In this document: one piece after another, positions 22,362 through 36,439 of the stretch
Layout: every line of letters starts with the position of its first letter
How positions within the stretch are numbered: position 1 is the first letter of the stretch
Assembly: GCA_021816765.1 (NCBI GenBank)
Contig: JAKAXB010000017.1
Span: forward strand, 1-36,674
Direction of reading: 5' to 3'
From: Natronospirales bacterium
GTDB taxonomy: Bacteria; Pseudomonadota; Gammaproteobacteria; Natronospirales; REEB76
DNA: 36,674 nt
Program-made: the position numbers and the translations under genes
The notes under the pieces: model-generated
What the model saw: only the letters and a program-made list of their open reading frames with translations
What the model was told of the DNA's origin: nothing
Databases searched by the model: none

Positions 22362-23692
22362 ACCGGAAAATGATCGTCTTCGTTCTTACGGCCGCCGTCT
22401 TGTTCGGCACGGGTCTCACCATCGGCCTCACGTGGCATGCCGGTGCACACTCGCCGGACACCGCGGGGCCTCGGTCCACGCCAGCGGAAAATCGCAAGGC
22501 AATCCCCCCGGAAAACTCCGCCCGCCGGGTGCTGTACTGGGTCAGCGCCATGAATCCCAAGCAGCGCTTTGATCACCCAGGCAAGGACAGCATGGGCATG
22601 GACTACGTGCCGGTGTACGCACCCGCTTCCGCCGCGCCGGAGGAAGGATTGAGGGTAAGCCCGCGCATGGTGCAGACCCTGGGAGTGCGCCTGGTGACGG
22701 TGCAACCCCGCCGGCTGGGCCAGGAAATCCACACCGTGGGCACGGTAGCGGTGGATGAAAACCGTCTCTACGACGTGAATCTGCGCGTATCGGGCTGGGT
22801 GACGGACCTCCGGGTGCGCGCGCTGGGGGATACCGTGCGGCGGGGACAATTACTGGCGACACTCTATTCGCCGGAACTGTATGCGGCGCAGAACGAATAT
22901 CTGATTGCGCGCGGCCAGTCGCGGCTCCTCGGCAACGGCAGCATCGAGCGGGCTGCAGTCGAGAAGCTCGAACTCCTCGGCATGACGCGCACGCAGATCG
23001 CGATCCTGGCTGTGCGGGGCAAGGCACGGAAACTCATGCCGGTTCTCTCGCCTGCTGACGGCACCGTGCGCGCGCTCGGCACGCGCACCGGCGGCTACGT
23101 CACACCGGGCATGACTCTTTTCAAGCTCGCCGATCTCGGCCGCGTCTGGGTGAAAGTCGCACTCTACAGCTACCAACTGCCCTGGGTCGCGCTGGGCGAT
23201 CCGGTGCGTCTGCGGCCCGCCAATGATCCCGCCCAAGTCTGGAACGGACGCGTGAGCTTCCTGTATCCGATGCTCAACGAGACGAACCGCACGCTGGAAG
23301 CCCGTCTGACGTTCGACAATCCGGCGGGGCTGTTACGTCCGGGAATGTTTGTGAATGCCACGCTACTCGGCACGCCGCGCACCGCACTCGCCATCCCCGC
23401 CGACGCAGTGCTGCGCTCCGCGGAGGGCGACTACGTGATGGTGGCTGAGGGACAAGGCCGGTTTCTTCCGACCCAGGTGGCACTCGGTCCCGAGTCCGGT
23501 GGCTGGGTGGAGATCAGGGCGGGGCTCAAGGAGGGCGATCAGGTGGCGGAAAGCGCCCAGTTTCTGCTGTACGCGGAATCCCAAGTGCAGCAGATCAACG
23601 CGCGCCTGCTGGGTCCCACGCCCGCCCCGCCAAAGAAGCAGCCAAAGATGCCGCCTATGCCGGGCATGCCGCCAAAAGGAGCGCAGCCATGA
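22358..23692 (+). CDS. cusB: RND efflux periplasmic adaptor, CusB-like
   Basis: A 444-residue membrane-fusion protein. One N-terminal hydrophobic helix (VFVLTAAVLFGTGLTIGL) anchors it in the inner membrane or serves as a signal. Residues ~60-87 are the heavy-metal-binding segment YWVSAMNPKQRFDHPGKDSM followed by GMDYVPVY, with methionines suited to Cu(I)/Ag(I). Then come the lipoyl/barrel-sandwich region and the beta-barrel (VTDLRVRALGDTVRRGQLLA; PADGTVRALGTRTGGYVTPG). The C-terminus is rich in Pro, Met and Lys (MPPMPGMPP). It overlaps both neighbours by 4 bases (ATGA). It links CusA to the TolC-like channel. Confidence 0.92.
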   Translation: MNRKMIVFVLTAAVLFGTGLTIGLTWHAGAHSPDTAGPRSTPAENRKAIPPENSARRVLYWVSAMNPKQRFDHPGKDSMGMDYVPVYAPASAAPEEGLRVSPRMVQTLGVRLVTVQPRRLGQEIHTVGTVAVDENRLYDVNLRVSGWVTDLRVRALGDTVRRGQLLATLYSPELYAAQNEYLIARGQSRLLGNGSIERAAVEKLELLGMTRTQIAILAVRGKARKLMPVLSPADGTVRALGTRTGGYVTPGMTLFKLADLGRVWVKVALYSYQLPWVALGDPVRLRPANDPAQVWNGRVSFLYPMLNETNRTLEARLTFDNPAGLLRPGMFVNATLLGTPRTALAIPADAVLRSAEGDYVMVAEGQGRFLPTQVALGPESGGWVEIRAGLKEGDQVAESAQFLLYAESQVQQINARLLGPTPAPPKKQPKMPPMPGMPPKGAQP

Positions 23693-26600
23693 TTCGCCGC
23701 CTCATCGAGACCTGCCTGGATAACCGCTATCTCGTCATGCTGGCTACTCTCGCGTTGCTGTTGGTCGGCATTCTGGCGGTCATGCGCATACCGCTCGAGG
23801 CCATTCCCGATATTTCACCGACCCAGGTGATCGTGAAGACCTCCTATCCCGGACAGGCGCCCCAAGTGGTGCAAGACCAGGTGACCTATCCCATCGAAGC
23901 CCTGCTGATGTCGGTGCCGGGACGGCGGGCGGTGCGCGGCTATTCCATGTTCGGCGATTCTTACGTGTACGTTATCTTCAAGGGCGGCACGCAGATCCGG
24001 CAAGCCCGCAACCTGGTGCTGCAGTACCTGAGTCAGGTCCAGGCGAAACTGCCGCCCGGGGTCACGCCGGCACTGGGTCCGGAAAGCTCCGGTGTGGACT
24101 GGATTTACGAGTACGCTCTCACGGACCCGAACGGCACGCTGAACCTCGCGGATCTGACCACGTTGCAGAACTGGTTTCTCAAATACCAGTTGCAGGCCAT
24201 TCCCGGAGTGGCGGAGGTGGCGACCGTGGGCGGTATGGTGAAGGAATACCAGGTGGTGGTGGACCCCAACAAACTGCTGGCTTACCACATCACCCTGCCG
24301 CAGGTGGAGGCGGCCATCCGCGCGGCAAACGGCGAAACCAGCGGCTCGGTGGTGGACATGGGCGGCGCCACCTACATGGTGCGCACTTCGGGTTATGTCC
24401 GCAATCTCGGCGATCTTGAGAGCGCGTCGCTCGCCGTGCGCGACGGCATTCCCATCACCCTGCGCGACATCGCCCGCGTTCAGTACGGTCCGCAACTGCC
24501 CAACGGTGTCGCCGATCTGAACGGCCGGGGACAGGTGGTGGGCGGCATCGTCATGATGATTCAGGGGGAAAACGCCTATACCATCATCCGGCAGATCGAG
24601 AACAAGCTCGCTACGTTGCAGACATCTTTGCCCAAAGGGGTAAAGGTCGTCACCACCTACAGCCAGCGTCCGCTGATCTCGAGAAGCATCCACACCTTGA
24701 GCGAAAAACTACTTGAAGAATTCCTCGTCGTCGCGCTGGTGTCGCTGCTGTTCCTCTTCCGCGTCCGCTCCGCGCTGGTGGCCATTGTGGCGCTGCCGCT
24801 CGGCGTGCTGATGGCGTTCATCGTGATGTGGGCGCAGGACGTCCCGGCCAACATCATGTCGCTCGGCGGCATCGCCATCGCCGTCGGCGCCATGGTGGAT
24901 GCCGCCATCGTCATGATCGAAAACATGCACAAGCATGTGGAGAAATCGCCGCAGGCCGATCCCTGGGCTCTGGCGCGCCAAGCCGCGGCAGAAGTCGGCC
25001 CGGCGCTGTTCTTTTCGCTGCTGATCATCGCCGTGTCGTTCCTGCCGGTATTCGCGCTCGGCGGAGAGGAGGGCAAGCTGTTCCGGCCGCTGGCTTTCAC
25101 CAAGACTTACTCCATGACAGCGGCGGCGCTGCTGTCGGTGACGCTGGTACCGATCCTGATGGCGTATTTCATCCGCGGGCGGATTGCTCCGGAGCACAGG
25201 AACCCGCTGAACCGGGTGCTGGCGCGTCTGTACCGGCCGGTAATTTCGCGCGCCCTGCGTTACCCTTGGTACGTGCTGGGCGCCGGAGCGCTGCTGCTCG
25301 GCAGCGTCGTCGTCCCCTGGAAGTACCTGCAGTCGGAATTCATGCCGCCGCTCGAGGAGGGCACGCTGCTGTACATGCCCATCAGCCAGGACCCGTCCAT
25401 TTCCATCGGCGAAGCTGCCTATGTACTCCAACTGACGGATCGCATCCTCAAGAAATTCCCCGAGGTGGAAACGGTATTCGGGCAAGCTGGACGTGCGCAA
25501 ACCGCCACTGACACGGCACCCATTTCCATGTATGACACGACGGTGACACTCAAGGATCCGGGCAAATGGCCGCGGGCGCTGACGATGCGCGAGCTGGAGG
25601 ACAAGCTCAATCGCGCGCTCAACATTCCCGGCTTGTCCAATATCTGGGTGCAGCCGATTCAGAACCGGGTGCAAATGCTGACCACGGGATTGCAGACGCC
25701 GCTGGGCATCAAGGTAGCAGGCCCGGATCTGGTCACCCTGAACCAACTCGGCGCCGACATCCAGGCGGCGGTGGAAAAGCTGCCCGGCGCCCGCACCGTG
25801 TACGCCGCCAAGGCCATCGGTGGGCGTTACATCGTGATCCATACGGACCGCCTGGCCGCTGCACGTTACGGTTTGTCCGTCGCAGATATAAACCGGTTCG
25901 TCGAGACCGCCATCGGCGGGGAAACGGTGGCGACCGCCGTCAACGGCCTGGAGCGCTTCCCCATTGTGCTGCGCTATCCGCGGGAACTGCGCCAGTCACT
26001 CTTGGCCCTGAAAGCGAGCCGCGTGGCCACACCCTCGGGCGCACAGATTCCGCTGGCGGAGCTGGCGGACCTCCGCATTGAGGATGGTCCGCCGATGCTC
26101 ACCAGCGATAACGCACAGTTGAACAACTGGGTGTATATAGACCTCAAGCCCGGCACCGGCATCGGGGGATTCGTGCACGCGGCGCAGCGGACGCTCGCCA
26201 GCACCCTGCGCCTGCCGGCGGGGTACACCCTGTCCTGGGTGGGGCAGTATCAGGTGATGCAGCAGGCGGCGGCACGACTGAAATTATTGATCCCGGCGGT
26301 GATCGTCCTGGTCGCGCTGCTGCTGTACTTCAACTTCAGGAATCTCACGGAAGTGGCGATCATCCTGTTGACGCTGCCGCTGTCGCTGGTCGGGGGTTTC
26401 TGGCTGGTATATCTGCTGGGGTACAAACTCTCGGTCGCCGTGGCCGTGGGGTTTATTGCGCTTGCCGGCGTGGCCGCGGAATTCGGCGTGGTGATGCTGC
26501 TGTACCTGGACCTGTCGGTGAAAACCCGGCTTTCCGAGGGCCGGCTCAATACCCCTGAGGACCTCCATCAGGCCGTTATCGAGGGAACGCTGTTGCGCCT

Positions 26601-26820
26601 GCGGCCCATGGCGATGACCTTCGCGACGGTGGTGGCGGGCCTCTTGCCCATCATGTTCAGCCAGGGAACGGGAGCGGACATCATGAAGCGCATCGCGGCA
26701 CCCATGGTGGGTGGCATGGTGAGCGCCGCCGCACTGAGCCTGGTGGTGATTCCTGCGGTGTATTACCTGTGGCAACGCGCTGTGCTCAGGCGTGCCATGC
26801 CGCATGACGGCGGCTCGTGA
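23689..26820 (+). CDS. cusA: CusA-family RND heavy-metal efflux pump (HME4, Cu(I)/Ag(I))
   Basis: A 1043-residue proton-driven efflux pump, full length for CusA (E. coli 1047). The membrane helix GGIAIAVGAMVDAAIVMIEN is the HME4 type found in monovalent-metal pumps; CzcA-type pumps have DFGxxVDG there. The three methionines that bind Cu(I)/Ag(I) in E. coli CusA (M573, M623, M672) have counterparts at M563 (LLYMPIS), M614 (PISMYDTT) and M663 (NRVQMLTTG). The C-terminal half ends with AGVAAEFGVVMLLYLDL and PMVGGMVSAAALSLVVIPA. It is the last gene of the operon. Confidence 0.95.
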   Translation: MIRRLIETCLDNRYLVMLATLALLLVGILAVMRIPLEAIPDISPTQVIVKTSYPGQAPQVVQDQVTYPIEALLMSVPGRRAVRGYSMFGDSYVYVIFKGGTQIRQARNLVLQYLSQVQAKLPPGVTPALGPESSGVDWIYEYALTDPNGTLNLADLTTLQNWFLKYQLQAIPGVAEVATVGGMVKEYQVVVDPNKLLAYHITLPQVEAAIRAANGETSGSVVDMGGATYMVRTSGYVRNLGDLESASLAVRDGIPITLRDIARVQYGPQLPNGVADLNGRGQVVGGIVMMIQGENAYTIIRQIENKLATLQTSLPKGVKVVTTYSQRPLISRSIHTLSEKLLEEFLVVALVSLLFLFRVRSALVAIVALPLGVLMAFIVMWAQDVPANIMSLGGIAIAVGAMVDAAIVMIENMHKHVEKSPQADPWALARQAAAEVGPALFFSLLIIAVSFLPVFALGGEEGKLFRPLAFTKTYSMTAAALLSVTLVPILMAYFIRGRIAPEHRNPLNRVLARLYRPVISRALRYPWYVLGAGALLLGSVVVPWKYLQSEFMPPLEEGTLLYMPISQDPSISIGEAAYVLQLTDRILKKFPEVETVFGQAGRAQTATDTAPISMYDTTVTLKDPGKWPRALTMRELEDKLNRALNIPGLSNIWVQPIQNRVQMLTTGLQTPLGIKVAGPDLVTLNQLGADIQAAVEKLPGARTVYAAKAIGGRYIVIHTDRLAAARYGLSVADINRFVETAIGGETVATAVNGLERFPIVLRYPRELRQSLLALKASRVATPSGAQIPLAELADLRIEDGPPMLTSDNAQLNNWVYIDLKPGTGIGGFVHAAQRTLASTLRLPAGYTLSWVGQYQVMQQAAARLKLLIPAVIVLVALLLYFNFRNLTEVAIILLTLPLSLVGGFWLVYLLGYKLSVAVAVGFIALAGVAAEFGVVMLLYLDLSVKTRLSEGRLNTPEDLHQAVIEGTLLRLRPMAMTFATVVAGLLPIMFSQGTGADIMKRIAAPMVGGMVSAAALSLVVIPAVYYLWQRAVLRRAMPHDGGS

Positions 26821-30187: not shown

Positions 30188-31159
30188 ATGGAATACCGGC
30201 GGCTCGGCAAATGGGGACTGAAACTCAGCGTCCTGTCTTTCGGTTCCTGGGTGACGTTCCAGAACCAGGTGGATAGGAAATTGGCCGGGCAATGTCTCGC
30301 CACCGCCTACGACGCCGGCGTGAATTTCTTCGACAACGCCGAGGCCTATGCCAACGGTGAATCCGAATGCATCATGGGCGCTGCGCTCAGGAATCTGGGG
30401 CTCCCGCGCGATTCCTGGTGCGTGTCCAGCAAGGTGTTTTTCGGCTGCAAGACCGACCCGAAGCCGACCCAGAAGGGACTGTCGCGCAAGCACATCGTGG
30501 AGGCCTGCCACCAGGCACTTGTGCGTCTGCAGGTGGACTATCTGGATTTTTATTTTTGTCATCGCCCTGACCCGGAGACTCCCATCGAGGAGACGGTACG
30601 CAGCATGCACGATCTGGTGCGGCAGGGTAAGGTGCTGTACTGGGGCACGTCCGAATGGACGGCGCAGGAGATCACCGCGGCGCACGCGATTGCGCGCAGC
30701 GAGCACCTCACACCGCCCAGCGTGGAGCAGCCGCAATACAATCTGTTTGCGCGCGCGCGCGTGGAGCAGGAGTACGCGCCCCTTTACCGAGACTATGGCA
30801 TGGGCACCACTATCTGGTCACCGCTCGCTTCCGGTGTGCTCACCGGCAAGTACAACGACGGCATTCCGGCGGATTCGCGTCTCAACCTGCCGGGCTATGA
30901 ATGGCTGCGGGAGCGCCATCAGAGTGAGGAGGGCCGCCGGCGCATCGAAGCGGTGCAGAAACTCTCCGCCATCGCGCGTGAACTCGGCATGAGCACCGGC
31001 CAGCTGGCCATTGCCTGGTGCCTGAAAAATCCCCACGTGACAAGCGTGATCCTGGGCGCCTCGCGGGTGGAGCAGCTCAGGGAAAACCTGAACGCACTTG
31101 CGCACCTGCCGCAGATCACACCGGCCGTCATGGCGCGCATTGAGACGGTGGTGGGCTGA
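30188..31159 (+). CDS. Aldo/keto reductase, potassium-channel beta-subunit-like type
   Basis: A 323-residue NADPH-dependent oxidoreductase with a TIM-barrel pattern. The catalytic tetrad is visible: D49 and Y54 (NFFDNAEAYANG), K82 (VSSKVF) and H125 (FYFCHRPD). SVEQPQYNLFARARVEQEYA and SPLASGVLTGKY are characteristic of the Kv-beta/AKR6-like branch, whose bacterial members reduce small aldehydes; the physiological substrate is unknown. The ATG at 30188 is chosen because the family pattern MEYRRLGKWGLKLS starts there, with GGAGAGA upstream. The stop shares one base with the next gene's ATG (TGATG), so translation is likely coupled to the TPR-sulfotransferase. Confidence 0.92.
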   Translation: MEYRRLGKWGLKLSVLSFGSWVTFQNQVDRKLAGQCLATAYDAGVNFFDNAEAYANGESECIMGAALRNLGLPRDSWCVSSKVFFGCKTDPKPTQKGLSRKHIVEACHQALVRLQVDYLDFYFCHRPDPETPIEETVRSMHDLVRQGKVLYWGTSEWTAQEITAAHAIARSEHLTPPSVEQPQYNLFARARVEQEYAPLYRDYGMGTTIWSPLASGVLTGKYNDGIPADSRLNLPGYEWLRERHQSEEGRRRIEAVQKLSAIARELGMSTGQLAIAWCLKNPHVTSVILGASRVEQLRENLNALAHLPQITPAVMARIETVVG

Positions 31160-31795
31160 TGCCGGAACATTCCGGCGAGGCGGTGCCCGGCGAAATCCAT
31201 CGGCTGATGTTCGAGGCCACAGCCTGCTACAACCACGGCGATATTGCCGGTGCCAGCGCGTGCTGTGCGCGCGTGCTTGCGCACTCGGGCGAATTTCCCG
31301 AGGCATTGCATCTGCTGGGTTTGTGTCGCTGGAAAGGCGGGGATCTCGAGGCGGCTCTCCACCTGCTGACCCGAGCCCAAGCCTTGCGGCCCATGGATGC
31401 GCAGTGGTGGCACAACCTGGGCATCGTGCGTGAGCAAAGCGGTGACACATCCGGCGCACAAGTGGCTTTTCGGCGTGCCGCGGAACTCAATCCGCGCAGT
31501 GCGGAATCCCATTACAACCTGGGCGTGACCTGTGAGGCGTTGGGTGACAGCGACACGGCGGAAACCGCCTACCGGCGGGCGCTCTTGGTGAATGACCGGC
31601 ACACCGGCGCGGCCGCGGGGCTCGCGGCCCTCTGCGAGGCACGGAATCGGCTGGATGAAGCACAGCGGTGGGTGGATACCGCACTGCGTGGAAGTCCCGA
31701 GGATGCGGTCGCCAATCTCACCCAGGCGCAGTTGGATTTCCGCACGGGACGCTACACGCAAACGGCCGCGCGGCTGGAAGCGCAGCTGAAGCATC
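31159..31795 (+). pseudogene. TPR-sulfotransferase, 5' part, split by the IS66 element
   Basis: This is the N-terminal 212 codons of a tetratricopeptide-repeat sulfotransferase. Successive TPR units are visible: EALHLLGLCRWKGGDLEAAL, AQWWHNLGIVREQSGDTSGA and ESHYNLGVTCEALGDSDTAE. At codon 213 the frame enters the IS66 left end, and a hybrid 229-residue product would stop at 31848. Joining 31795 to 35448 restores an uninterrupted frame of 543 codons including the stop. In intact homologues the TPRs precede a PAPS-dependent sulfotransferase domain. Confidence 0.9.
31788..31795 (+). repeat. Target-site duplication, left copy (GAAGCATC)
   Basis: GAAGCATC directly precedes the left terminal repeat and recurs exactly at 35440-35447. 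Eight bases is the duplication length made by IS66-family elements. Confidence 0.93.
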
Positions 31796-31821
31796 GTGTC
31801 CTTCCGGCGAGCGTGCGTGAC
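31796..31821 (+). repeat. IS66 terminal inverted repeat, left
   Basis: It pairs with 35414-35439 in inverted orientation at 23 of 26 positions and abuts the target duplication. Confidence 0.92.
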
Positions 31822-31951
31822 GGGTGTCCCGTAGAGGCGGTACGCTGAGGTAGGCGACTGATGTCGGCGTCTGGTGTGGCAGGGTGCTCGCCCTGGGACT
31901 CACCCCCTGCGGAGCTTGCGTTCCGAGATCGGTTCCGCTATCGTCTGCGGC

Positions 31952-32839
31952 ATGGAGACCCTGCTGCGCTACCGGGGCCGTGCGCTCACGACGGCCGATA
32001 TCCGAGAGATTCGGGAGCTGATTGCGGCGCACCCGGGTATGAGCCGGCGGAAGCTGTCAGAGCGATTGTGCGAGCAATGGGGCTGGCGGCAGGCGAACGG
32101 TGCGCTGCGGGATATGGTGGCACGGGGGCTGATGCTGGCGCTGCATCGGGCCGGGCACATCGAGCTGCCGGCGGTGCGCCGCGGGTTGCATAATCCTCTG
32201 GCGGCGCGCCAATTGGCCCGTCGGCGACCGCACCCGGTGGAGGTCGATCGCACGCCCTTGTGTGCGAGCCTGCGGGAGCTGGGAGCGCTTACGTTCTGTC
32301 AGGTTCGGCGTACACCGCAGGAGGCGCTGTTTAACTGGTTGATCGAGAGCGATCACTATCTGGGCTATACCCGGGCGGTCGGGGAGCATCTGAAGTTCAT
32401 GGTGTACGCGGGGGTTAGACCGGTGGCCCTCTTCGCCTGGAGCTCGGCGGCACGGCACCTGGGACCTCGTGATCGGCATCTGGGATGGTCGCTTGAAGCG
32501 CGGCGGCAGAACATTCGTTTCCTGGCCTACAACACGCGCTACCTGATCCCGAGCTGGGTACAGGTGCCGCACCTGGCCTCGCACCTGCTTTCGCGCATGA
32601 CGCGGATGTTGTCTGTCGAATGGGAGAAGGTGTACGGGCATCCGGTGTATTTCGCCGAGACGTTTGTCGATCCCACGCGTCATCGGGGCACCTGCTACCG
32701 GGCAGCGAACTGGGTGATGCTCGGGCGCACCCAGGGGCGTGGCAAGGATGACCTCACGCACCGGCCGAACCGCACGGTGAAGGACGTGCTGGGACTGGCG
32801 TTGGTGGCGGACTTTCGCGAGCGGCTGCTTTCGGCATGA
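31952..32839 (+). CDS. DUF4338 (DruA-like) protein carried by the IS66 element
   Basis: A 295-residue DUF4338-family protein. Its N-terminal part, RYRGRALTTADIREIRELIA followed by AHPGMSRRKLSERLCEQWGW, is a helix-turn-helix-like segment, and NGALRDMVARGLMLALHRAG is the family hallmark. The core includes LFNWLIESDHYLGYTRAVGE, then HLKFMVYAG, and VYFAETFVDPTRHRGTCYRA. The C-terminus VKDVLGLALVADFRERLL is also typical. DUF4338 is the domain of DruA in Druantia anti-phage systems, but no other Druantia component is present. The start is the ATG at 31952, where homology begins; the longer frame from 31874 reaches toward the terminal repeat. Its stop overlaps the tnpC start (ATGA). The biochemical activity is unknown to me. 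Confidence 0.9.
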   Translation: METLLRYRGRALTTADIREIRELIAAHPGMSRRKLSERLCEQWGWRQANGALRDMVARGLMLALHRAGHIELPAVRRGLHNPLAARQLARRRPHPVEVDRTPLCASLRELGALTFCQVRRTPQEALFNWLIESDHYLGYTRAVGEHLKFMVYAGVRPVALFAWSSAARHLGPRDRHLGWSLEARRQNIRFLAYNTRYLIPSWVQVPHLASHLLSRMTRMLSVEWEKVYGHPVYFAETFVDPTRHRGTCYRAANWVMLGRTQGRGKDDLTHRPNRTVKDVLGLALVADFRERLLSA

Positions 32840-34527
32840 GTCGCAAGGGTGGAAAGCCGCACCGGCATGCCCCGATAGGCAAGCCGCCAACGATGGAGGT
32901 GAACCTCGAGGAGCTCGCGGCGGTTCTCGAGCGCGCCAAGGGAGCGTTGAGTGCCGAGGATCACGCGAAGCTGACGGCGGCGATGGCAACGCTCGCCTCG
33001 ACGACGCAGATCGTGGCCGAGCTGATCGCACAGCTGCAAGGGAAGAAGACCTCCCTCGAGCGGCTGCGCCGGATGCTCTTTGGATCCCCGACGGAGAAGA
33101 CCGATGAGGTGCTGGGCGAGGAACGCGCCGGTGCGGACCGGCAGGATGGGGCGGTGAGCGCATCGCCCGATGGCGCGGCGGCCCGCAAGAAAGCCCCTGG
33201 CCACGGGCGCAACGCGGCGAGCGCCTACTCTGGGGCCGAGCACATCCGGGTCGCGCACGCGGATCTTTCCCGGGGCGATGCCTGCCCCGGCTGTCCCCAG
33301 GGCAAGGTCTATCCGCTCGAATCCCCCGCGGTGCTGGTGCGCATTACGGGGATGGCGCCGCTTGGGGCGCGGGTATACGCCTGTGATCGGCTGCGCTGCA
33401 ATCTGTGCGGAGAAGTCTACACCGCCGCCGCCGCCCCCGGGGTGGGGAGCGAGAAGTACGATGCGAGCGCCACCGCCATGGTGGGGATGCTGCGCTACGG
33501 CACCGGGCTACCGTTCAATCGCATCGAACAACTGCAGAAAGCGATGCGTGTGCCACTGCCCGCGGCCACGCAGTGGGATCTGGTGAGAGGTGCCCTTCCG
33601 CAGCTCCTTCCCGCACACGAGCAGCTGATCGAGCAGGCCGCCCAAGGCACCCTGGTGCACACCGACGATACGACCATGAAGCTGCTCGAGCTCACCGCCG
33701 AGCAGCGCGCGGCGGCGCTCGGGGAGGATGCCGAGGGGCGCACCGGGGTGTTCACCTCCGGGATCGTCTCGATCGGTGAGGGACGCAAGATCGTGCTGTT
33801 TTTCACCGGCGCGCGCCATGCCGGAGAGAACCTCGCCGAAGTCCTCAAGCGGCGCGCGGCGCAGTTGCCCATCCCGATCCAGATGTGCGATGGCTCATCA
33901 AGCAATACCGCCGGGGACTTCGAGACGCTGCTAGGGAAATGTAACGCGCACGGTCGGCGCAAGTTCGTCGAGCTCGCCGAGCTCTTCCCCGAGCAGGTGC
34001 GTTTTGTGCTCGAGACGCTGCGGGAGGTCTACAAGAGCGATGCCGAGGCACGTACTCGAGAGCTCAGCCCCGCAGAACGGCTGCGACTGCACCAGCGTGA
34101 GAGCGCCCCGCGCATGGCGGCGTTGAAGGAGTGGATGGACCGCCAGCTCACCGAGCGCCTCATCGAACCGAACTCGCGCCTCGGGGAGGCGATCCGGTAT
34201 CTACAAAACCACTGGGATGGGTTGACACTGTTTTTGCGGGTGGAGGGCGTGCCACTCGATAACAACGTGGTCGAAAGAGCGCTGAAGCGGGCGATCCTGC
34301 ACCGTAAAAACTCGTTGTTCTACAAGACGCTCAACGGCGCGAAGGCCGGCGATGTCTTCATGAGTTTGATTTATACCGCGGAACTGAACGGGGTCAATCC
34401 GTTCGAGTACCTCACGGCCCTGCTGCGCCACCCGCTCGAGCTCGCCGAGCGAGCGGGCGAGTGGATGCCCTGGAACTTCGACTCGACGCTCGCGCGTCTG
34501 GAAGCAGGCCCGGACCCGCCCGCATAG
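32836..34527 (+). CDS. tnpC: IS66-family transposase TnpC
   Basis: The 563-residue catalytic protein. N-terminal coiled-coil region (LAQLQGKKTSLERLRRMLFG-like, about residues 30-90); zinc-ribbon cysteines C150/C153 (CPGC) and C188/C191 (CNLC); then the DDE-type domain with D277 (HTDDT), D352 (MCDGSS) and E480 (DNNVVERALKRAILHRKNSL), and the C-terminal VFMSLIYTAELNGVNPFEYL. It is the normal length for the family and shows no frameshift. Translation is coupled to the DUF4338 gene by a 4-bp overlap. In classic IS66 elements tnpC follows tnpA and tnpB on one strand; here those are on the other strand. Confidence 0.95.
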   Translation: MSRKGGKPHRHAPIGKPPTMEVNLEELAAVLERAKGALSAEDHAKLTAAMATLASTTQIVAELIAQLQGKKTSLERLRRMLFGSPTEKTDEVLGEERAGADRQDGAVSASPDGAAARKKAPGHGRNAASAYSGAEHIRVAHADLSRGDACPGCPQGKVYPLESPAVLVRITGMAPLGARVYACDRLRCNLCGEVYTAAAAPGVGSEKYDASATAMVGMLRYGTGLPFNRIEQLQKAMRVPLPAATQWDLVRGALPQLLPAHEQLIEQAAQGTLVHTDDTTMKLLELTAEQRAAALGEDAEGRTGVFTSGIVSIGEGRKIVLFFTGARHAGENLAEVLKRRAAQLPIPIQMCDGSSSNTAGDFETLLGKCNAHGRRKFVELAELFPEQVRFVLETLREVYKSDAEARTRELSPAERLRLHQRESAPRMAALKEWMDRQLTERLIEPNSRLGEAIRYLQNHWDGLTLFLRVEGVPLDNNVVERALKRAILHRKNSLFYKTLNGAKAGDVFMSLIYTAELNGVNPFEYLTALLRHPLELAERAGEWMPWNFDSTLARLEAGPDPPA

Positions 34528-34549
34528 GGATCGGGCCCGAGCCTTCGAG

Positions 34550-34930
34550 TCAGGAGGGTCTCGCTGCGGGCGGCTCGAGGGCAATCCGCCGCCACATCGG
34601 GGCCGCCTGAGCCCGCTGCGGATCCCCGCCCCAGATCAGCGCCGAGAACTCATGCGCCAGCAGCTCCCGGCTGACCGCCCCGGCACCCGCCGGCCAGTAC
34701 CGGAATCTCCCCGCGCTCAGGCGTTTGCTCGCGAGCCAAAATCCTTGGCCGTCGTAAACCAACAGGCGGATCGCCTTCCCCGAGCGGGTGCGAAACACGA
34801 ACATCGTCCCGTCGCCGGGGTTGGCCAATAGCACCGAACGGCAGACCTGCCCCAGCCCATCGATCCCGCGGCGGCCATCGACCGCCTCGATCGCCACCAG
34901 CACGCGCATCTGCGGGGTAATCTGGATCAT
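34550..34930 (-). CDS. tnpB: IS66 accessory protein TnpB
   Basis: A 126-residue TnpB (Orf2) protein: MIQITPQMRVLVAIEAVDGR, RGIDGLGQVCRSVL, GTMFVFRTRSGKAIRLLVYD, GQGFWLASKRLSAGRF. It is required with TnpA and TnpC for IS66 transposition in studied elements, though its mechanism is unclear. The ATG at 34930 overlaps the tnpA stop (ATGA) and matches the family N-terminus. The C-terminal ~25 residues, after FSALIWGGD, are an extension beyond the usual end. Confidence 0.9.
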   Translation of the reverse strand: MIQITPQMRVLVAIEAVDGRRGIDGLGQVCRSVLLANPGDGTMFVFRTRSGKAIRLLVYDGQGFWLASKRLSAGRFRYWPAGAGAVSRELLAHEFSALIWGGDPQRAQAAPMWRRIALEPPAARPS

Positions 34931-35352
34931 GACCGCGCTCCCAAGCCTGCGCGGCACAGCCCCAGCACCACCTCGGTTGCCGCTCCCGCGGGCATCTGCA
35001 CGGAAAAGCGCTGCCCGCCCGGACCCTCGAGAACCAGCCGACAGTCTCCACCGACGGTGAGCGCGCCGCTCAGATCCACGAACTGCGGCGAAGGAGGCTT
35101 CCTCGACCTGCTTGTGCGTGCCTGCCTGGGTCGATCCGCCGCCGCCGCACCGCTGAGGCGTTTGAGCTTGTTGTACTCAAGTCCCAGCACCCGGCTGCTG
35201 CGATGCACCCCGTGCCGGCGCGCCAGCCTGCCCGCCGCAGCCCACGCCCATCCTGGCAGGGCCTTGCCCGGCTGGCTATCACGCCGATACTCATCCAGCC
35301 GTTGCCGCAGACGCACCAGGTCCTGCGGTTGCCCGTTCTCTCTGTTGCCCAT
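34927..35352 (-). CDS. tnpA: IS66 accessory protein TnpA
   Basis: A 141-residue TnpA-like protein. Residues ~30-65 (WAWAAAGRLARRHGVHRSSR followed by VLGLEYNKLKRLSG) resemble the DNA-binding part of IS66 accessory proteins. The C-terminal portion QFVDLSG and CRLVLEGPGGQRFSVQMPAG also fits. GGAGGA lies 4 bases before the ATG at 35352. The gene begins 61 bases inside the right terminal repeat, so its promoter should lie in 35353-35439. Confidence 0.85.
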   Translation of the reverse strand: MGNRENGQPQDLVRLRQRLDEYRRDSQPGKALPGWAWAAAGRLARRHGVHRSSRVLGLEYNKLKRLSGAAAADRPRQARTSRSRKPPSPQFVDLSGALTVGGDCRLVLEGPGGQRFSVQMPAGAATEVVLGLCRAGLGARS

Positions 35353-35413
35353 ACGCTCCTCCAATCGCCCGAATTAGGCGTCAGAGAAACGCTATCAATC
35401 CCGGCCGCCCCCA

Positions 35414-35439
35414 GTCACGCACGCGTGCCGGAAGTACAC
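35414..35439 (-). repeat. IS66 terminal inverted repeat, right
   Basis: Inverted copy of 31796-31821 with 3 mismatches in 26, abutting the right copy of the target duplication. Confidence 0.92.
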
Positions 35440-35447
35440 GAAGCATC
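35440..35447 (+). repeat. Target-site duplication, right copy (GAAGCATC)
   Basis: Exact repeat of 31788-31795. Deleting the element plus one copy joins AAG-CAT to CCG-CTC in frame. Confidence 0.93.
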
Positions 35448-36439
35448 CGCTCTCGCCGGTCAATCTTTCTCTCACCCTTGGACGGCTGGGGTCGGCTTAC
35501 GACCGGCTCGGGAAACATGCGGCTGCGTATGCTGCCTTCCTGCGGGCCAAAAGGGTACTGAGTGGCATGGCGGGGGACGCACCCGAGGACAGCGTGTACG
35601 GCCTTGCTTCCGCCAAACGCATGCGGCGTCTGTTTGGTGTCCTCGTAAAGGATGCCGACACGGAGGCTCGGGAACCTGCGGCGGTTTCTCCCGTGTTCCT
35701 GCTGGGATTCCCCCGTTCCGGCACCACGCTGCTGGATCAGATTCTCTCCTCCCATTCACGCATCGTGGTACTGGAAGAAAAACACACGCTGCAGGACATA
35801 CTCAATGAGTATGCGGTTTCCGATGCGGGGCTCGCGGAATTTGCCGGCTGCGACGGCGCCACGCTGCAACATTATCGCGAGCGTTACTGGGCGCGGGTGG
35901 CGGAATTCATGCCGGGTCGGCCGCCCGATAAACTGTTCGTGGACAAGTTGCCGCTCAATACCCTGCTGCTGCCGCTTATCCGGCGGTTGTTTCCGCAGGC
36001 GCGCTACCTATTCGCCGTGCGTGATCCACGTGATGTGGTGCTCTCCTGCTTCATGCAGAGTTTCGAACCCAATGAGGCGATGCGGCATTTCTTCACCTTG
36101 GAAAGTACGGCGCGTTATTACACCGCCGTCATGGATGTCGGACTGCGGGCATTGCAGGTATTCCCACAGTGTATCCACCGGCTGCGTTACGAGGATCTGG
36201 TGGAGGATACACAGGCCGAAGCAAAACGATTGCTGGCGTTCCTGGGCCTGCACTGGGAGCCACTGGTGCTGGAATTCCACAAGACAGCACGACAGCGGCA
36301 TATCAATACGCCCAGCTACCATCAGGTGGCGCAGCCGATTTACCAAACCTCACGCCAGCGTTGGCGCACCTACGCGAGTTATCTGCAACCGGTTACGGCC
36401 GACCTGCGGCCGTTTATAGAGTATTTCGGTTACACCTGA
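35448..36439 (+). pseudogene. TPR-sulfotransferase, 3' part (PAPS-dependent sulfotransferase domain)
   Basis: The frame resumes VNLSLTLGRLGSAYDRLGKH, the final TPR, and then a complete sulfotransferase domain. The 5'-phosphosulfate loop is FLLGFPRSGTTLLDQIL, the 3'-phosphate region is YLFAVRDPRDVVLSCFMQSF, and the end is TADLRPFIEYFGYT. It lacks its natural start. An ATG at 35567 could begin a 290-residue product with the whole catalytic domain if transcribed from the IS or its flank. Together with 31159-31795 it makes a 542-residue protein. Such proteins sulfate tyrosine or small molecules; the target here is unknown. Confidence 0.9.

What the first reader, a model, noticed from the sequence alone, without database searches (positions are those of the whole stretch)
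31952..34527. DruA-like DUF4338 protein as a translationally coupled transposon component
DUF4338 is known as DruA of Druantia defence, but here it sits inside an IS66 element with an ATGA overlap to tnpC and no Druantia partners. This suggests that DUF4338 proteins work with transposases, for example in target choice or regulation, and that DruA may have been recruited from mobile elements. Alternatively the element could carry a defence-like passenger.
Basis: partly seen in the sequence, partly recalled or inferred. Interest (0 to 1): 0.8.

Follow-up and report, generated by a model that had tools for sequence, protein, structure and literature searches.

The report
Mom-like enzyme built into jumping genes
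A bacterial jumping gene carries, locked to its transposase, a protein usually labelled as part of a phage-defence system; relatives of this protein are joined to transposases of about seven unrelated jumping-gene families and look like the enzyme that phage Mu uses to chemically disguise its DNA.

Summary
Confirmed and extended. Window 31796-35439 is a complete 3,644-bp IS66-family element with ~29-bp inverted repeats and an exact 8-bp target duplication (GAAGCATC). It interrupts a TPR-sulfotransferase gene whose frame is intact once the element is removed. Its genes are DUF4338 then tnpC (ATGA overlap), convergent with tnpA then tnpB (ATGA overlap). No Druantia partner is present. The layout is conserved: 74 of 82 closest loci, from many phyla, have tnpC directly after DUF4338. 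Elsewhere DUF4338 is fused to, or adjacent to, IS4/Tn5, ISAs1, IS701, IS1634, ISKra4 and IS1380-like transposases. Multi-copy elements with intact DUF4338 and target duplications show that it moves with them. The AlphaFold model is a GNAT fold whose best PDB match is phage Mu Mom. The residues conserved in Mom (His58, Arg111, Ser124, Asp149, Tyr159, Asn163) are kept in all or nearly all transposon DUF4338 (Asp/Glu at Asp149) but are lost in Druantia DruA. Best reading: DUF4338 is a Mom-like, probably DNA-modifying, transposon accessory, not a defence passenger. Chemistry and purpose are inferred. DruA being a derived offshoot is plausible but not resolved by the tree.

The parts
31788..31795 (.). 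left copy of the 8-bp target site duplication GAAGCATC
   Evidence: exact match to 35440-35447; the only register of 41 tested that gives an 8-bp match
31796..31824 (+). left terminal inverted repeat GTGTCCTTCCGGC...
   Evidence: the same repeat motif occurs at the ends of related elements in other phyla
31952..32839 (+). DUF4338 (PF14236) protein, 295 aa: N-terminal helical HTH-like region plus Mom-like GNAT domain (about residues 108-290)
   Evidence: PF14236 E 7e-24; AlphaFold model pLDDT 92; best PDB match phage Mu Mom
32836..34527 (+). tnpC, IS66 DDE transposase, starts in an ATGA overlap with DUF4338
   Evidence: PF03050 2e-46, NF033517 1e-64; junction sequence
34550..34930 (-). tnpB, IS66 accessory protein, convergent to tnpC
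   Evidence: PF05717 2e-21, NF033819 3e-19
34927..35364 (-). tnpA-like IS66 accessory gene, ATGA overlap with tnpB
   Evidence: no family hit but matches the gene in the tnpA position of related elements, 1e-13 in the same genus and 5e-45 in L044
35411..35439 (-). right terminal inverted repeat GTGTACTTCCGGC...
35440..35447 (.). right copy of the target site duplication GAAGCATC
31159..31795 (+). 5' part of the interrupted TPR-sulfotransferase gene (host DNA; includes one copy of the duplicated target)
   Evidence: left flank joined to right flank gives one uninterrupted frame; TPR families
35448..36439 (+). 3' part of the interrupted gene, sulfotransferase domain
   Evidence: PF13469 7e-38

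Best explanation
The DUF4338 gene is an integral component of a four-gene IS66-family insertion sequence, made together with the transposase TnpC. Its product has an N-terminal helical, HTH-like region and a GNAT-fold domain of the phage Mu Mom type. Most likely it is a DNA-base-modifying enzyme that acts where the transposase acts, on the element's ends or its excised form. There the modification either shields element DNA from host restriction, as Mom does for the transposable phage Mu, or sets a mark that gates transposition, comparable to Dam control of IS10 and IS50. Shown here: element borders, target duplication, conserved gene order, mobility of DUF4338 with the element, multi-family transposase association and fusions, predicted fold, and shared Mom residues. 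Inferred: DNA modification, its substrate, and its purpose.
For: Element with inverted repeats, 8-bp duplication and restored target gene. tnpC follows DUF4338 in 74 of 82 loci, 41 of 74 with a possible 4-bp overlap; DUF4338 and TnpC distances correlate (Mantel r 0.49, p 0.001, similar to TnpB-TnpC 0.39). Related elements have the same inverted-repeat motif and exact 8-bp duplications in L086, L087, L098, L114 and L116. Nine copies of a 2,413-bp element holding only DUF4338 and tnpC, all nine DUF4338 frames intact, exact 8-bp duplications in four. Nine near-identical copies of a DUF4338-Tn5 fusion element, with target duplications visible at several. Fusion or adjacency to IS4/Tn5, ISAs1, IS701, IS1634, ISKra4 and IS1380-like transposases. 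Model pLDDT 92; Mom 8bv8 is rank 1 of 350,542 PDB chains, Foldseek E 6.9e-7, Z 14.5 over 169 residues against 13.2 for the next entry. Profile-profile alignment to Mom E 1.6e-6, prob 90, over 163 columns. Pfam Mom reaches 26 of 40 family members at E up to 0.1, best 1.1e-9. Mom His58, Arg111, Ser124, Asp149, Gly156, Tyr159, Ala161, Asn163, Gly168 correspond to 135, 196, 210, 240, 246, 249, 251, 253, 258, almost invariant across all transposon groups. S124A is the inactive mutant in 8bv8 by its title.
Against: No activity has been shown for any transposon DUF4338. The window's own hit to Pfam Mom is weak (13.5 bits, cut-off 27.1), and an HMM of the family does not find Mom in PDB sequences, so the link rests on fold, profile-profile comparison and residues. 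GNAT proteins modify many substrates, and PMC10853773 takes DUF4338 domains fused to DndF to act perhaps on proteins. Most IS66 elements lack DUF4338, so it is not needed for IS66 transposition in general.
Confidence: 0.55

Rival explanations
1. DUF4338 is a DNA-binding regulator or target-selection factor without catalysis: the HTH-like region and the GNAT fold act as a docking module for the transpososome.
For: N-terminal helical HTH-like region in most stand-alone forms; fusions to transposases fit a targeting domain.
Against: Catalytic-type residues shared with Mom are almost invariant over many transposase partners, more than docking would need; ISAs1 fusions lack the N-terminal region yet keep all of them.
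Confidence: 0.2
2. DUF4338 is a GNAT protein acyltransferase that modifies the transposase or a host protein and thereby controls transposition.
For: GNAT fold; many ordinary N-acetyltransferases follow Mom in the fold search; PMC10853773 calls DUF4338 a GNAT domain.
Against: The usual CoA-binding signature R/Q-x-x-G-x-G/A is not kept: the G position (207) is His or Asn in most members, as Asn in Mom; the specific resemblance is to Mom.
Confidence: 0.15
3. DUF4338 is a defence or anti-defence passenger captured by the element (a piece of Druantia).
For: Distant homology to Druantia DruA over the first half of the GNAT domain (hhalign 9e-11, prob 97); shared R-D-x-x-x-G-W motif.
Against: No Druantia partners; PADLOC no hit; regularly next to or fused with the transposase; stays in a two-gene element that lacks tnpA and tnpB; DruA lacks the Mom-like residues; transposon proteins are not nested in DruA.
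Confidence: 0.07

Closest known systems
IS66 family insertion sequences (tnpA, tnpB, tnpC)
   Same: TnpC with DDE_Tnp_IS66, TnpB PF05717, 8-bp target duplication, overlapping genes
   Different: A fourth gene, DUF4338, sits directly before tnpC; in this copy tnpA-tnpB are inverted; repeat ends begin GTGT rather than GTAA (GTAA recalled from memory; seen here in the G663 elements)
Phage Mu Mom (PDB 8bv8; PF25680)
   Same: GNAT fold, best PDB match; same order of conserved His, Arg, Ser, Asp, Tyr and Asn; Mu is itself a transposing element whose Mom protects its DNA from restriction (PMC6483171)
   Different: Only about 17% identical, extra N-terminal HTH-like region, an insert carrying R-D-x-x-x-G-W, linked to or fused with IS transposases; activity unknown
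Druantia type I DruA (PF14236)
   Same: Same Pfam family; first half of the GNAT domain aligns; R-D-x-x-x-G-W motif
   Different: DruA lacks the Mom-type residues, has its own long N- and C-terminal parts, and sits with druB-E; separate clade
DUF4338 GNAT domains fused to DndF
   Same: Same Pfam domain, called a GNAT (PMC10853773)
   Different: In phosphorothioate restriction systems; no transposase; that paper has no mention of Mom or DruA in its main text

Membership tests
IS66 insertion sequence | TnpC with IS66 DDE domain | tested here: met
   PF03050 2e-46 and NF033517 219 bits against cut-off 180
IS66 insertion sequence | accessory TnpB | tested here: met
   PF05717 2e-21, NF033819 above cut-off
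IS66 insertion sequence | accessory TnpA | tested here: inconclusive
   no family hit; similar to the gene in the tnpA position of relatives
IS66 insertion sequence | terminal inverted repeats and 8-bp target duplication | tested here: met
   also in relatives
Druantia system | DruA together with DruE helicase and DruB-D | tested here: not met
   none among the window's neighbouring ORFs; PADLOC no hit for the four element proteins
Druantia system | full-length DruA profile (PF14236 1-297) | tested here: not met
   window covers 44-225 only, Druantia DruA 3-296
Mom DNA-modification family | Mom-type GNAT fold | tested here: met
   rank 1 in PDB, Z 14.5, on a predicted model
Mom DNA-modification family | conserved Mom residues including Ser124 | tested here: met
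Mom DNA-modification family | passes the Pfam Mom cut-off | tested here: not met
   window 13.5 bits against 27.1; best of 40 relatives E 1.1e-9
Mom DNA-modification family | modifies DNA bases | not testable with these tools
   needs LC-MS or restriction-protection assay
canonical acetyl-CoA GNAT | R/Q-x-x-G-x-G/A loop | tested here: not met
   position 207 is His or Asn in most members

The most novel reading that the evidence does not exclude
Several insertion-sequence families carry, as a built-in and often fused transposition factor, a Mom-like enzyme that modifies element or target DNA; the defence protein DruA is a descendant of this mobile-element family that lost the Mom-type active site.
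Probability: 0.4. Interest if true: 0.9.

Novelty: new variant of a known kind. Interest (0 to 1): 0.75.

Why it matters
It gives DUF4338, a domain of unknown function best known from Druantia, a concrete testable activity (Mom-like DNA modification). It identifies an accessory domain shared by about seven transposase families. It suggests that self-encoded DNA modification can be part of how simple transposons move or survive. It also warns that the family name DruA misdescribes transposon genes: of 71 neighbourhoods surveyed, 46 have a transposase fused or adjacent and 3 are recognisable Druantia loci.

Tried and rejected
IS91 plus tyrosine-recombinase as a further partner (Thiodictyon, L028): rejected, because the DUF4338 groups with IS4/Tn5 forms and an IS4 transposase lies downstream within the same split DUF2235 gene, so the IS91 unit is probably a later insertion. 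DUF4338 as Druantia remnant: rejected. A shared single origin of all IS66-linked DUF4338: rejected (AU p 0.00014). Finding Mom in PDB by sequence with a DUF4338 profile: nothing. Direct Mom-DruA profile match: none (E 0.27). DruA fold search: weak GNAT matches, Mom tied for best at Z 9.3, so DruA's closeness to Mom is undecided. First motif tally had an offset error and was replaced. The L061 'target duplication' is a run of N and is not counted. Literature searches found no paper linking DUF4338 with IS66 or transposons, but subscription papers, including the 2010 IS66 review known to me from memory, could not be read.

Full report
CHECK. The ORF called DruA-like is real: window 31952-32839, 295 aa, PF14236 at E 7e-24, and tnpC starts inside its stop codon (ATGA, 32836). 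Left flank plus right flank gives one uninterrupted TPR-sulfotransferase frame, so the element is a recent-looking clean insertion. On the minus strand, convergent to tnpC, lie tnpB (PF05717) and a tnpA-like gene, again with an ATGA overlap. The element is single-copy in its genome; a same-genus genome (G003) holds a diverged relative with the colinear order tnpA-tnpB-DUF4338-tnpC.

CONSERVATION IN IS66. A scan of one genome per species gave at least 581 relatives; the best 80 come from Pseudomonadota, Acidobacteriota, Planctomycetota, Chloroflexota, Desulfobacterota, Bacteroidota and others. Counting the window and G003, 74 of 82 loci have a tnpC partner, 59 colinear and 8 convergent like the window; four of the eight exceptions end within 400 bp of the DUF4338 stop, so a missing partner cannot be judged there. 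A 4-bp overlap is possible in 41 of 74. DUF4338 and TnpC divergence correlate about as TnpB and TnpC do. Related elements share the inverted-repeat motif and several have exact 8-bp duplications. IS66 elements without DUF4338 are common: in a sample of Acidobacteriota 4 of 20 IS66 matches (4 of the 7 longest) had DUF4338 next to them, in a sample that included one genome chosen for having it. So DUF4338 marks a subset of IS66.

MOBILITY. In one planctomycete genome nine copies of a 2,413-bp element contain only DUF4338 and an IS66 transposase between long inverted repeats. All nine DUF4338 frames are intact and four copies have exact 8-bp duplications. In another, nine near-identical copies carry DUF4338 fused in frame to a Tn5-type IS4 transposase, and direct repeats of about 8 bp are visible at several of them, e.g. 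CTTGATAG, CTTATATG, CTTAAATC (read by eye). DUF4338 therefore moves with the transposase and is not host DNA.

OTHER TRANSPOSASES. In 71 PF14236 neighbourhoods taken from family searches of whole genomes in several phyla (fetched), 46 have a transposase fused or directly adjacent: IS66 23, IS4 12, IS701 4, ISAs1 3, IS1634 2, IS1380-like 2 (the IS1380-like matches are weak). Three are Druantia loci, four are full-length DruA without a tested partner, three are large non-transposase proteins, and fifteen are unassigned, several at contig ends. Copies of one element in one genome are counted separately (G663 four times, G629 several times). Other searches added ISKra4 and further IS4/Tn5 and ISAs1 fusions. 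The survey genomes include some chosen for carrying the gene, so these are counts, not rates. On trees the IS66-linked proteins are not one clade (AU p 0.00014) and at least 11 partner changes are needed once the mislabelled IS91 case is discounted.

FOLD AND RESIDUES. The model of the window protein has mean pLDDT 92. Of 350,542 PDB chains the best Foldseek match is phage Mu Mom 8bv8 (E 6.9e-7), ahead of all ordinary GNAT enzymes; VIA-align 2 gives Z 14.5 over 169 residues, 3.7 A rmsd, 17% identity, next entry 13.2. Profile-profile comparison with ten phage Mom proteins aligns 163 columns (E 1.6e-6, prob 90), and Pfam's Mom model reaches 26 of 40 family members, best E 1.1e-9, though the window only weakly. 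The conserved Mom residues H58, R111, S124, S146, D149, G156, Y159, A161, N163, G168 match H135, R196, S210, T237, D/E240, G246, Y249, A251, N253, G258, which are all but invariant across every transposon group. S124A is the inactive mutant crystallised, by the entry title. The CoA loop of ordinary acetyltransferases is not kept in either. Druantia DruA aligns with the first half of the domain but has Ala, Val, Gly and mostly Lys at 135, 196, 210 and 240, and Mom and DruA profiles do not find each other.

READING. The transposon proteins bridge Mom and DruA: they share the catalytic-type half with Mom and the R-D-x-x-x-G-W half with DruA. With Mom as outgroup, the simplest history is that the Mom-type site is ancestral and was lost on the Druantia branch; the branch is so long (4.45 changes per column) that the tree itself cannot place DruA. 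Mom protects Mu DNA from restriction (PMC6483171). By analogy DUF4338 would modify transposon DNA near the transposase, for protection or for timing; Tn5 and Tn10 are known (from memory) to be timed by Dam methylation. This step is inference. That DUF4338 is a GNAT domain was already stated by PMC10853773; the transposon association and Mom-type active site were not found in the papers that could be searched.

Noticed in passing
L249 and L367 (planctomycete G663, near 2.11 Mb): Two DUF4338-IS66 copies have outer flanks that are reverse complements of each other (TGATATTC / GAATATCA), which suggests an inversion by recombination between the two copies.
   Followed up: no
L254 (G629): Two different DUF4338 transposons lie within 1 kb of each other, one fused to a Tn5-type and one to an ISAs1 transposase.
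   Followed up: no
L028:4339-10324: A DUF2235 gene is split by a DUF4338-IS4 element that seems itself interrupted by an IS91 plus tyrosine-recombinase unit.
   Followed up: partly
L039:182-3904, L145, L146, L147, L304-L306: PF14236 domains in very large proteins (650-1300 aa) or next to ATPases/helicases with no transposase: candidate defence systems distinct from Druantia type I.
   Followed up: no
BFVD hits: Several phage proteins annotated as homing endonucleases or endonuclease-like match the DUF4338 model, so Mom-like GNAT domains may be fused to phage nucleases.
   Followed up: no
H3-H13: NCBI names most divergent PF14236 plasmid proteins 'Druantia anti-phage system protein DruA' even where no DruE is annotated near; names from this family should not be taken as Druantia.
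   Followed up: partly
window 23689-26820: A large RND-type efflux pump gene (CusA-like by eye) lies upstream of the element; not examined.
   Followed up: no
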